From assembly GCA_022793655.1 (NCBI GenBank), contig JAAWDG010000013.1, positions 62,001-126,000 on the forward strand: 64,000 bases of DNA. Reading direction: 5' to 3'. Shown here piece after piece: positions 60,486 to 63,730 of this stretch (positions are counted from its first letter, which is position 1; each line of letters starts with the position of its first letter). Under the pieces are notes generated by a model. It was not told the DNA's origin. It worked only from the letters and a program-made list of their open reading frames with translations, and did no database searches. The position numbers and the translations under genes were made by a program. Source of the stretch: Clostridiales bacterium (lineage in GTDB: Bacteria > Bacillota > Clostridia > Oscillospirales > CAG-272).

Positions 60486-60522
60486 AAAATGGAATGAACC
60501 TATGATAGGTTCATTCCATTTT
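60486..60522 (-). terminator. 18-bp perfect stem terminator overlapping a stop codon
   Basis: AAAATGGAATGAACCTAT and its exact complement around one base. On the minus strand it is followed by CTTTTAT. The stop codon (60513-60511) and last three codons of the small gene lie inside the stem. Confidence 0.82.
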
Positions 60523-60696
60523 GTCAGAATCATTGTTGTTCGTTTGCTTGCGTTCGATTAAAAATGTGAGTATCGCGCCAACCGTGGCGATGGCCACGAC
60601 CGAGGCCGAGCCGGGTAGAATCAACTGGCCAATCCACCCCATCAAAAGGGCGGCAATGAAAACCCAGAGGGCTTTAACTAGAGATCCGAGATTCAT
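60511..60696 (-). CDS. Small membrane protein, third of three
   Basis: 61 residues, TAGGAGG before the ATG. Two hydrophobic segments (8-28 and 31-47, with 'WVFIAALLMGWIGQLI' and 'ASVVAIATVGAILTFLIE') and a polar tail 'NNNDSDKME'. The tail resembles that of the protein before it ('NDDSDKKNE'), but the membrane part differs. Function unknown. It is the last gene of the operon starting with the HtrA-like protease. Its last codons form the terminator stem. Confidence 0.8.
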   Translation of the reverse strand: MNLGSLVKALWVFIAALLMGWIGQLILPGSASVVAIATVGAILTFLIERKQTNNNDSDKME

Positions 60697-60727
60697 ATAG
60701 GTTTCCTCCTATTAGCTTGTGTAAATG

Positions 60728-60928
60728 TTATTCGTTCTTTTTATCAGAATCATCGTTGGCTGTTTGATTAGACCAGATGATAAAGAAACCTATAATTGCG
60801 CTGGCAAATATAGCGCCGGTCCCCGGCAAATTCAGTCTTACACCAATATACACTTCTGCTACAAAAGAAAGCACTATGGTAATGATGGCCGATGACAGGG
60901 CGACAAGGAGTCTTGATTTGTTGTTCAT
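60728..60928 (-). CDS. Small membrane protein, second of three
   Basis: 66 residues, AGGAG before the ATG. Two hydrophobic segments ('LLVALSSAIITIVLSFVAEVYIGV' and 'GTGAIFASAIIGFFIIW') with 'LNLPGTG' between, then a polar tail. The protein at 60988-61161 has the same build ('LNWPGTG', 'IFAIATLGFFMI'). Its 5' region (60920-60979) repeats the sequence at 61153-61213, including codons from the end of the upstream exported-protein gene. This marks a tandem duplication. Function unknown. Confidence 0.82.
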   Translation of the reverse strand: MNNKSRLLVALSSAIITIVLSFVAEVYIGVRLNLPGTGAIFASAIIGFFIIWSNQTANDDSDKKNE

Positions 60929-60979
60929 ACAAATTCTCCTAAATATCGTTTAGTTCATGTAAATATTTTTCGCGCGAAC
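60920..60979 (-). repeat. Duplicated segment, copy 2
   Basis: Sixty bp nearly identical to 61153-61213: GTTCGCGCGAAAAA, an ATTTACATGAA tract, ATATTTAGGAGAAT and the start of a small gene. Here the GTTCGCGCG part is no longer coding. Confidence 0.82.
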
Positions 60980-60987
60980 CTGCAAGA

Positions 60988-61161
60988 TTATTTTTGTTGA
61001 TCGGAACTTATCATGAAGAAACCTAAAGTTGCGATGGCAAAAATTGATCCGGTCCCTGGCCAATTCAAGTATCCGCCAATTAGGCCTTCCGCAAAAAAAC
61101 CAACAAGTATAATTGCAATGAAAGCTAATAAACCGATAGCAATACGATTTGAGTTATTCAT
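60988..61161 (-). CDS. Small membrane protein, first of three (57 residues)
   Basis: A 57-residue frame that short-ORF cut-offs would miss: start ATG at 61161 with AGGAG 7 bases upstream, stop TAA at 60990-60988. It begins MNNSNRIAIGLL, has 'FIAIILVGFFAEGLIGG', then 'LNWPGTGSIFAIATLGFFM' and ends SSDQQK. It aligns along its whole length with 60728-60928 (NN-x2-R, AE-x2-IG, LN-x-PGTG-x-IFA, GFF). So it is real, and the pair came from one ancestor. Membrane-embedded; function unknown. Confidence 0.85.
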   Translation of the reverse strand: MNNSNRIAIGLLAFIAIILVGFFAEGLIGGYLNWPGTGSIFAIATLGFFMISSDQQK

Positions 61162-61213
61162 AGCGATTCTCCTAAATATTGTTTTAATTCATGTAAATGT
61201 TTTTCGCGCGAAC
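61153..61213 (-). repeat. Duplicated segment, copy 1
   Basis: Covers the last codons of the exported-protein gene, the spacer with AGGAG and the first codons of the small gene at 61161. It matches 60920-60979 with a few changes and one inserted base. It is the parent copy, as only here the reading frame ends properly (RAKNIYMN). Confidence 0.82.
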
Positions 61214-62257
61214 TTCCATGGGATGAGATTCAGTGGTATAATACCAACTGGGACTAATTGAAAAAGAGGCTGTTGGACCGGATATGGAAGCGCCAATTGA
61301 AGCGGATGGTTTAATGCCCAATTTACCATGATAATACTGGGCATAAGCAATAAATTCTTTGTATGTGTATTTATTGTTTATAGATACATAATATCTGAGG
61401 TATCCTAAATAATATGGAATCGTAAGTGAATCTGCGTGAAACCACTTAATTTTAACTTGTCTGCCCTGTCCCATAGATAGATTACTAATTGAATAAAGAT
61501 TATCAGGAAGAATGTTATATGTTTCTCCATCTAATGAACCTTTAAGTGTAAAAAATACCCGTGGATTAGAATGAACAACCAGGTCTGTTGCTGGTACTAC
61601 AGCAAAATGATCGGTCAGTTTATAATATGGCTCCGTTTTCCATTCAAAGCGATATTGGATTTGATAGGTATCATCGCCCATCCAAACCATACCCATATTC
61701 TGTTTTAAATAGCAAGAGGAATCAGCATTCCAGATGGAAGCGCCGCTGTTGCCGCTTTGTCCATAGTATATGCGGTCGTTTCTTGTTTCGCCATTCATGT
61801 TTTCCCAGTCGTAAATGGGCTGCAATTCTAAAACACCGTTTGACGAAAGGGTTTGCAGTTCAGTGTTGTTGTGATCTTCTTCAGCGCATTTGGTTTGGTT
61901 GACGCCATAGTCAAACTCTTGGCGCGAAAGCTCTACGGATGTTACTTCTTCGGTTTCCGGATTCTCATAATTGACGGTGTATAACGCGGAATCAGAAATG
62001 GCCAACGCATTTTCGTCTAATTCCTGCAGGTCTTCTTCGGTGTACCATTCGTCAATTTCCTCCATGGTCCAGCCTGCGTTTAACAGCATGCTGATGGTCG
62101 CTTCTCGGCGGGTAATGGATGGACGTTCGGTTACGATTTCTTCTCGGGTTATTTCATCAGCCGCAACCGAAGAATCCTCCGCGTCATTGGCCCAAATACC
62201 GTTGCATAGCCCCAGTACTAAAGCGTCTGTCATCAAGAGTACACGTGCTCTTTTCAT
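61184..62257 (-). CDS. Exported protein, function unknown
   Basis: 357 residues with AAGGAGG before the ATG. A signal peptide-like start (MKRARVLLMTDALVLGLCNGIWAND) is followed by an acidic helical part (30-95, 'TMEEIDEWYTEEDLQEL'), then a long beta-rich domain with many Tyr, Trp and Asn (150-357). It ends 'WYYTTESHPMEVRAKNIYMN'. Only two Cys remain after the signal region, so no zinc site. I do not recognise it. It follows the HtrA-like gene by 68 bp and precedes three tiny membrane proteins, so it may be a substrate or partner of the protease. Confidence 0.75.
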   Translation of the reverse strand: MKRARVLLMTDALVLGLCNGIWANDAEDSSVAADEITREEIVTERPSITRREATISMLLNAGWTMEEIDEWYTEEDLQELDENALAISDSALYTVNYENPETEEVTSVELSRQEFDYGVNQTKCAEEDHNNTELQTLSSNGVLELQPIYDWENMNGETRNDRIYYGQSGNSGASIWNADSSCYLKQNMGMVWMGDDTYQIQYRFEWKTEPYYKLTDHFAVVPATDLVVHSNPRVFFTLKGSLDGETYNILPDNLYSISNLSMGQGRQVKIKWFHADSLTIPYYLGYLRYYVSINNKYTYKEFIAYAQYYHGKLGIKPSASIGASISGPTASFSISPSWYYTTESHPMEVRAKNIYMN

Positions 62258-62325
62258 GGTGTTTACCTCCTTAAAATGTAAAAAATTTATTTAGTTATGG
62301 TCATATTGCCATAGATTATCATGAA

Positions 62326-63297
62326 TTATGATTTCATATCGATAGAGATATCTATGATTTCTGCATCCCTGACAATGGTGATGGCAAAGGTTTCTGAAAC
62401 TTTTTGCAAAGCTTCATGATATTCAACCAAATTGGTGATCGATTGATTGTTAATTTTTATCAATAAATCGCCTTCTTGTAATTGTTCAAATACGGGGCTT
62501 TCTTCGCTGATCTCTTGGATTCTTAGCCCTTTTGCCCCTGGCACTCCGTATTTTTGATAAATATCATTTTGGAAAGTGATTTGCAGGTTTGGTGTTTCAA
62601 TACCTTGTTCCAACCGATCAATAACTTCTTGCAATCGATTGGATGGAACGGCAAATCCAAGACCTTCTGCGCCAAATTCAGTCGACTTGAAAGTAGTCAT
62701 ACCAATTACCTGATTATGTTCATTCAAAAGCGGCCCGCCACTACAACCGGGGGAAAGGTCAATGTTAGTTTGCAAGAGCCGTTGGGTGCCAAACCCGACG
62801 ATATCTAAATTGGTAATAAAGCCTTCTGCGTAGGTGCCCTGCAGATATACCGAGATTGGCGTCGCTATGCTGAAAACGGTTTGCCCTTTTTGGCATTGAG
62901 CAGAATCGGCAAAGGAGAGAGCAGGAAGCTCGGTTTCTATTTCAAGCAAAGCAATATCGCTTATCTCATCTTTTGCAATTAGTTTTGCCGTGATCGCTTG
63001 CTGTTCATTGGTAATAAGATAAATTGCATCGCTGTTTTTTTGTATATTATGATAGTTTGTTATAATTTTATGGGGTTGATAACAGAAGCCAGTCCCTATC
63101 ACGACGTCAGAAGTTAAAATCTCTTTTTCAAGATCAATGCCAGTGACAATCGTAACGACTGAACCAGAAACCGTATCATGGTTTCGCTTATCATGAGCGG
63201 CTGGTTTCCATATGGCAATCACCAAAGCAACTATGGATAAAATAGCCGCTGTTGTACAGAGAATCCACAGAGAACGGTTTTGGTTTGTTTGATTCAT
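62326..63297 (-). CDS. HtrA/DegP-like membrane serine protease with PDZ domain
   Basis: 323 residues with GGAGG before the ATG. One N-terminal membrane anchor (10-30), trypsin-like domain with triad H83 ('ITNYHNI'), D114 ('EISDIALLEI') and S186 ('GCSGGPLLNE'), then a PDZ domain (about 230-323, 'LQEGDLLIKINNQSITNLVEYHEAL'). The base before the active Ser is Cys rather than the usual Asn (GNSGGP). It faces the outside and cuts misfolded or specific exported proteins. It is first of a five-gene minus-strand unit. Promoter at 63425-63453. Confidence 0.92.
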   Translation of the reverse strand: MNQTNQNRSLWILCTTAAILSIVALVIAIWKPAAHDKRNHDTVSGSVVTIVTGIDLEKEILTSDVVIGTGFCYQPHKIITNYHNIQKNSDAIYLITNEQQAITAKLIAKDEISDIALLEIETELPALSFADSAQCQKGQTVFSIATPISVYLQGTYAEGFITNLDIVGFGTQRLLQTNIDLSPGCSGGPLLNEHNQVIGMTTFKSTEFGAEGLGFAVPSNRLQEVIDRLEQGIETPNLQITFQNDIYQKYGVPGAKGLRIQEISEESPVFEQLQEGDLLIKINNQSITNLVEYHEALQKVSETFAITIVRDAEIIDISIDMKS

Positions 63298-63338
63298 GTT
63301 TAGCCTCCATGTTGGGAATTTTATAGAAACAGCTTATG

Positions 63339-63453
63339 TTCGCTGGAGCGAAAATTTTAGTTTTTCATTATTATTCTTTTTTGTTGTGCGAATGATTAGC
63401 AAAAAGTACATATTTGATATACATATTATACTTCAATAAGCAAAAAATGTAAA
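63339..63453 (-). promoter_or_regulatory. Promoter and leader palindrome of the HtrA operon
   Basis: Minus strand TTTACA (63453-63448), 17-bp spacer, TATAAT (63430-63425), start near 63418. The leader of about 120 nt contains a palindrome TTCGCT-GG-AGCGAA (63339-63352), a possible operator or stem. Confidence 0.7.
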
Positions 63454-63570: not shown

Positions 63571-63645
63571 GCTGGTGTGGCTCAATGGCAGAGCAGCTGA
63601 TTTGTAATCAGCAGGTTGATGGTTCGACTCCGTTCACCAGCTCCA
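63571..63645 (+). tRNA. tRNA-Thr (anticodon TGT)
   Basis: Acceptor GCTGGTG pairs with CACCAGC, anticodon loop TTTGTAA gives TGT for threonine, T arm has GGTTCGACTCC, and CCA is encoded (63643-63645). Reads ACA codons and, with wobble, other threonine codons. Confidence 0.95.
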
Positions 63646-63730
63646 GGGAGCGTTCCCGAGCGGCCAAAGGGGGCAGACTGTAAATCTGTTGTCACTGACT
63701 TCGGTGGTCCGAATCCACCCGCTCCCACCA
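63646..63730 (+). tRNA. tRNA-Tyr (anticodon GTA)
   Basis: Acceptor GGGAGCG pairs with CGCTCCC, long variable arm as expected for tyrosine tRNA, anticodon loop CTGTAAA gives GTA, T arm GGTCCGAATCC, CCA encoded (63728-63730). It begins at the very next base after the tRNA-Thr CCA, so a nuclease must separate them exactly. Confidence 0.95.

What the first reader, a model, noticed from the sequence alone, without database searches (positions are those of the whole stretch)
60486..63453. Five-gene unit of an HtrA-like protease, an unknown exported protein and three mini membrane proteins
All five genes lie on the minus strand between one promoter (63425-63453) and one strong terminator (60486-60522), with short gaps. 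The protease has an intact triad (H83, D114, S186). The second gene codes a 357-residue secreted protein I cannot place, and the other three code two-helix proteins of 57-66 residues. A membrane protease, a candidate extracellular partner and tiny membrane proteins make a plausible surface stress, signalling or toxin-like system. The function is inference only.
Basis: partly seen in the sequence, partly recalled or inferred. Interest (0 to 1): 0.65.

Follow-up and report, generated by a model that had tools for sequence, protein, structure and literature searches.

The report
HtrA, secreted protein, mini-membrane-protein cassette
An uncultured Clostridia-type bacterium carries a rare gene cassette made of a specialised membrane protease, a secreted protein of unknown family and a row of tiny duplicated membrane proteins; relatives lose the first two but keep the tiny ones, a pattern best explained by a secreted weapon and its protectors, though no function has been tested.

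Summary
The five genes, promoter and terminator are real, and the cassette is more than a chance run. The protease is a dedicated, divergent HtrA. It sits beside one secreted-protein family in all four genomes where that family's closest members occur. It is absent from four same-order genomes that lack an intact secreted gene. All nine genomes checked also have an ordinary HtrA.

The three minis are paralogues. Spacers before them hold copies of the secreted gene's last codons (KNIYMN-stop), so the array grew in units that included that 3' end.

In sister species G001 the promoter, terminator and flanks are conserved and four minis are intact, but the protease and nearly all of the secreted gene are gone. 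In G333 a 3' scrap and one mini remain. In G026 both large genes look decayed. G391 has the full architecture with different two-helix proteins.

Losing a secreted gene while keeping and multiplying its small partner is a published signature of effector-immunity arrays. Best explanation (about 0.42): a secreted effector, matured or controlled by its own HtrA, with minis as membrane immunity proteins. No activity was tested, and the secreted protein matches no described family.

The parts
63425..63453 (-). Promoter TTTACA-17-TATAAT
   Evidence: Consensus scan, 11 of 12; same position and 17-bp spacing in sister species G001, as TTGACA-17-TATTAT, though the genes behind it differ
62326..63297 (-). 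Dedicated HtrA-like protease: one N-terminal TM, trypsin-like domain with H83/D114/S186, one PDZ domain
   Evidence: Pfam Trypsin_2 and PDZ above cut-off; triad; TM at 13-29; member of a separate clade, support 100/99
61184..62257 (-). Exported protein of undescribed family (candidate effector)
   Evidence: Signal-like N terminus; no family in Pfam, NCBIfam, PHROGs, PADLOC or PDB; relatives in G026, G391, G440, G695 and others
61184..61219 (-). Strongly kept 3' end of the exported gene (MEVRAKNIYMN-stop), copied into mini spacers and left behind in deleted loci
60988..61161 (-). Mini protein m1 (57 aa helical hairpin)
   Evidence: dN/dS 0.08 against its G001 orthologue; AlphaFold hairpin, pLDDT 77
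60950..60979 (-). Relic of the exported-gene 3' end (VRAKNIYMN-stop) in the spacer before m2
   Evidence: 19 of the last 21 nt match, none of 2000 shuffles as good
60728..60928 (-). Mini protein m2 (66 aa, two TM helices, polar acidic tail)
   Evidence: Two TM segments; dN/dS 0.25 against G001 orthologue
60712..60732 (-). Weaker relic of the exported-gene 3' end before m3 (overlaps the end of m2)
   Evidence: 16 of 21 nt, shuffle p 0.0055
60511..60696 (-). Mini protein m3 (61 aa, two TM helices)
   Evidence: Two TM segments; dN/dS 0.16 against G001 orthologue
60486..60522 (-). Intrinsic terminator, 17-pair stem
   Evidence: Scan; conserved in G001 with two compensatory pair changes

Best explanation
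A horizontally moving effector-immunity cassette. The exported protein is secreted and acts on neighbouring cells, most likely at their membrane. The membrane-anchored HtrA-like protease beside it is a dedicated partner that processes, activates or quality-controls it outside the membrane. The tiny helical-hairpin proteins sit in the producer's membrane and protect it from this effector and from earlier variants. The mini array grew as units of 'effector 3' end plus mini' were added or duplicated while effector bodies were lost. Shown: gene content, paralogy of the minis, 3'-end relics, a linked protease clade, and loss of protease and effector with retention of minis in two genomes. Inferred: secretion, toxicity, processing and protection.
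For: Divergent HtrA lies beside the exported gene in 4 of 4 genomes holding the closest exported relatives, and is absent from G001, G002, G003 and G333, which lack an intact exported gene; it is one clade, 100/99. In G001 the protease and nearly all of the exported gene are deleted but four minis are intact behind the same promoter. In G333 a 3' scrap of the exported gene is followed by one intact mini. Relics of the exported 3' end precede 6 of 7 minis, counting the gene's own end before m1. Mini orthologues are under purifying selection. Distribution is patchy: 2 of 295 genomes in the family, 4 of 394 in the order. The cassette has 14-16 points lower GC than the rest of the fetched DNA in G391 and G440. 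Published effector-immunity arrays arise by effector loss with immunity retention (PMC5361080), and T7SS immunity genes form tandem paralogue strings (PMC9484751).
Against: No toxic domain is recognised and no toxicity was measured. G440 has protease and exported protein with no small two-TM gene beside them. G391 small proteins are not shown to be homologous to the window minis. Only two genomes, both MAGs, show loss with retained minis. Simple tandem duplication of a mini with its upstream DNA would give the same relics.
Confidence: 0.42

Rival explanations
1. A surface-sensing or envelope-stress module that works like DegS: the C-terminal tail of the exported protein is a ligand for the protease PDZ domain, and the minis are small membrane substrates or regulators that are cut or released on signal.
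For: The protease has the DegS layout, one TM, one protease domain and one PDZ domain. The exported C terminus VRAKNIY is identical between G000 and G391 although the proteins are 59% identical.
Against: Distribution is patchy and the pair is lost or decayed in close relatives. No regulator gene is linked. The minis persist and multiply without protease or ligand in G001. The DegS model score is far below its cut-off (84.6 against 423).
Confidence: 0.2
2. The minis are active membrane partners of the exported protein rather than protectors: holin-like pores, export helpers or anchors that let it leave the cell or stay on the surface.
For: Small two-TM genes follow the exported gene in G000, G391 and, at a distance, G695. 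They are helical hairpins.
Against: An accessory export factor would not be expected to persist with four intact copies after loss of its cargo, as in G001, or to stay alone as in G333. G440 has no such gene beside the pair.
Confidence: 0.2
3. Protease and exported protein are partners, but the minis are an unrelated duplicated gene family that only shares the transcript.
For: The pair occurs without small two-TM genes in G440, and minis without the pair in G001.
Against: Small two-TM genes are otherwise rare, yet follow exported genes or their remnants in G000, G001, G391, G333 and G695. Spacers carry exported-gene 3' ends.
Confidence: 0.13

Closest known systems
HtrA/DegP/DegQ/DegS serine proteases (Do family)
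   Same: Trypsin-like domain with intact triad, PDZ domain and an N-terminal TM
   Different: Separate clade from the ordinary HtrAs of the same genomes; active-site motif PGCSGG/PGCSGS instead of PGNSGG; always beside the exported gene; all curated subfamily scores far below cut-off
T6SS effector-immunity arrays with orphan immunity genes (Vibrio cholerae; PMC5361080)
   Same: Small genes kept in arrays after loss of the large partner; 3' ends of the large gene left behind
   Different: No T6SS genes nearby; the product has a signal-like N terminus; a dedicated protease is part of the cassette; immunity not shown
Tandem T7SS immunity genes of Firmicutes (esaG, tsaI, tipC; PMC9484751)
   Same: Strings of non-identical paralogues beside a secreted product in the same phylum
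   Different: No LXG or EsaD-type protein and no T7SS gene in the cassette; the minis are 57-66 aa hairpins of another family
Class II and leaderless bacteriocin loci
   Same: A secreted product next to small membrane proteins
   Different: The secreted product is a 357-residue protein with a signal-like N terminus, not a small peptide

Membership tests
HtrA (Do) protease family | Trypsin-like fold with His-Asp-Ser triad | tested here: met
   PF13365 81.6 bits against cut-off 27.6; H83, D114, S186
HtrA (Do) protease family | At least one C-terminal PDZ domain | tested here: met
   PF00595 27.5 bits against cut-off 23.2
HtrA (Do) protease family | Active protease | not testable with these tools
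   Needs purified enzyme and an S186A control
DegS (equivalog) | Score above the curated TIGR02038 cut-off | tested here: not met
   84.6 bits against 422.95
DegS (equivalog) | PDZ-gated cleavage of an anti-sigma factor | not testable with these tools
   No linked anti-sigma gene seen among the cassette genes; function needs experiment
Effector-immunity cassette | Large secreted gene followed directly by small gene(s) | tested here: met
   G000, G391, and at a distance G695; not seen in G440
Effector-immunity cassette | Small genes kept intact where the large gene is lost | tested here: met
   G001, four minis; G333, one mini
Effector-immunity cassette | Remnants of the large gene inside the array | tested here: met
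   3'-end relics before 6 of 7 minis, counting the gene's own end before m1
Effector-immunity cassette | Exported protein is toxic and the small protein neutralises it | not testable with these tools
   Needs expression and protection assays in laboratory strains
Class II bacteriocin locus | Mature product is a small peptide (under about 10 kDa) | tested here: not met
   Exported protein is 357 aa; a smaller processed form cannot be excluded
Known anti-phage defence system (PADLOC) | Match to a defence model covering the system | tested here: not met
   Only the generic protease domain matches RT-Protease and Avs1b models; exported and mini proteins have no meaningful match

The most novel reading that the evidence does not exclude
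A previously undescribed class of secreted antibacterial proteins in Bacillota that use a dedicated membrane HtrA protease for maturation and tandem two-helix membrane proteins as immunity factors, with a strongly kept C-terminal tail that may be the ligand of the protease's PDZ domain.
Probability: 0.3. Interest if true: 0.75.

Novelty: new variant of a known kind. Interest (0 to 1): 0.52.

Why it matters
If true, it adds a family of candidate weapons and protectors in uncultured relatives of Clostridia, ties a dedicated HtrA protease to effector maturation, and offers a small testable system: one secreted protein, one protease and one 57-residue hairpin. The retained minis are a natural experiment, because sister species differ in whether they keep the effector.

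Tried and rejected
AlphaFold of the exported protein with a 3-row alignment gave pLDDT 31, so no fold search was made. I did not send proteins from genome-fetch loci to the structure tool, because its stated rule does not list that source. Phage, plasmid and viral-contig searches with the window exported protein found nothing. A mini-profile hit in G026 C41 (E 9e-4, one stop inside) overlaps the start of an unrelated secreted-protein ORF and was rejected as chance. hhalign of the window minis against the G391 small proteins gave 2% probability, so I call them alike in design only. Weak Pfam hits (hSac2, DUF7318, DUF6069) are below their cut-offs and were rejected. Rfam found only the tRNAs above gathering score. 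A conserved leader peptide in the spacers was considered; relics from duplication or displacement explain the repeats more simply. Co-inheritance with the downstream ABC transporter was rejected: G002 and G003 keep the ABC gene and lack the cassette at that place.

Full report
Observation. The catalytic triad is intact, and the protease scores above the Pfam cut-offs for Trypsin_2 and PDZ. The exported protein has no family above cut-off in Pfam and no meaningful match in NCBIfam, PHROGs, PADLOC or the PDB sequences. The minis are real genes: against their orthologues in sister species G001, dN/dS is 0.08, 0.25 and 0.16 for m1, m2 and m3, and m1 is predicted as a helical hairpin (pLDDT 77).

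Anatomy. The three minis are paralogues (49 and 40% identity to m1). The spacer before m2 repeats the end of the exported gene, including in-frame codons for VRAKNIYMN and the stop. A scan with the last 21 nt of the exported gene finds this 3' end before 6 of the 7 minis in the window and G001 arrays, counting the exported gene's own end before m1; shuffle p is at most 0.0055 for these six. The array therefore grew by units that contained the 3' end of the exported gene and a mini.

Sister species. In G001 the locus lies between the same tRNA-Thr and the same ABC transporter (93% identical). The promoter keeps its position and 17-bp spacer, and the terminator stem carries two compensatory pair changes. 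Four minis are intact. The protease is gone. Of the exported gene only a 69-nt internal scrap (71% identity; 31.9 bits against at most 23.8 in 200 shuffles) and the 3' tail remain. The differences in the tail before its lost stop are third-position changes, which suggests that the loss is recent (inference). G002 and G003, of the same genus, have no cassette at the ABC gene.

Other genomes. G026 (JAAWQR010000007.1, Clostridiales MAG ABMPRH_105_1) has protease and exported gene side by side at a contig end, next to transketolase genes. The protease frame is broken near its start and in the active-site region; the exported frame has an early stop and a later frame change. This looks like decay, but MAG error cannot be excluded. 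G391, in another family, has protease, exported gene (4-nt overlap) and two paralogous small two-TM proteins of 92 and 93 aa. G440 has a 25% identical exported relative followed by a divergent HtrA, so the gene order is swapped. G333, of the G391 genus, has only a 3' scrap reading ESHPMEVRARNIYMS-stop and then a 59-aa hairpin protein behind a strong RBS. Its loop (NFPYAGPIFSIA) resembles the window minis (NWPGTGSIFAIA); hhalign gives E 0.0007 for this single comparison, at only 26% probability. G695, farther away in the phylum, has a distant exported relative followed by a 73-aa two-TM protein, with no HtrA beside it. Further distant relatives lie in G748, in G129 (marginal, E 7e-4) and on a Planococcus antarcticus plasmid.

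Dedicated protease. All nine genomes tested have ordinary HtrAs (best 122-134 bits to PF13365). Only those with the closely related exported gene have a divergent one as well (79-88 bits; 47 bits for the broken G026 copy), always beside it. These four form one clade with 100/99 support, apart from 13 ordinary HtrA-family rows. The tree tool warns that the long branch of G440 makes its place unsure.

Mobility. In the family 2 of 295 genomes have the exported gene, in the order 4 of 394. In G391 and G440 the cassette has 14-16 points lower GC than the rest of the fetched DNA, which suggests horizontal acquisition. That DNA includes highly expressed genes, so the contrast may be inflated. In the window itself the cassette is not unusual in GC.

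Mechanism. Loss of the large genes with retention and multiplication of the small ones, and effector 3' ends left between them, matches the published displacement model for immunity arrays (PMC5361080) and the tandem paralogue strings of T7SS immunity genes (PMC9484751). I commit to an effector-immunity cassette with a dedicated maturation or control protease, at 0.42. Secretion, toxicity, cleavage and protection are inferred. The rivals are a DegS-like sensing module (0.2), minis as active membrane partners (0.2), and minis as unrelated neighbours (0.13).

Limits. Only two genomes show loss with retained minis, and they are MAGs. The G391 small proteins are alike in design but not shown to be homologous to the window minis. 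The background for small two-TM genes was estimated from about 180 kb. No transcript, structure or activity data exist here.

Noticed in passing
63571-63730, and L005 4700-11900 (just past the window end): Two tRNA genes (Thr, Tyr) are followed past the window end by genes typical of an integrated mobile element: an ArdA/LPD28 protein, a D12-class adenine methylase, DUF3849 and SpoVG. Its ends and integrase were not looked for.
   Followed up: partly
L045 (NZ_CP016535.2, Planococcus antarcticus plasmid pPA05-1): The exported-family gene is present twice, 15,501 bp apart on a 31,009-bp record, which suggests that the plasmid record is a head-to-tail dimer.
   Followed up: no
L035 4933-6327: Upstream of the G440 pair lies a secreted protein with a weak M23 peptidase match (22.3 bits, below cut-off) and helical segments reminiscent of the exported protein's N-terminal motif.
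   Followed up: no
61184-61219 and homologues in L034, L039 and L015: The exported C-terminus VRA(K/R)NIY is kept between families whose proteins are 59% identical, and is what survives in deleted loci. It could be a PDZ ligand or a constrained leader region for the next gene.
   Followed up: partly
L067 1414-1938 (G129): A marginal profile hit belongs to a secreted-looking protein with the same W..P...D and YAH...SIS pattern, so the exported superfamily is probably wider than the searches show.
   Followed up: no
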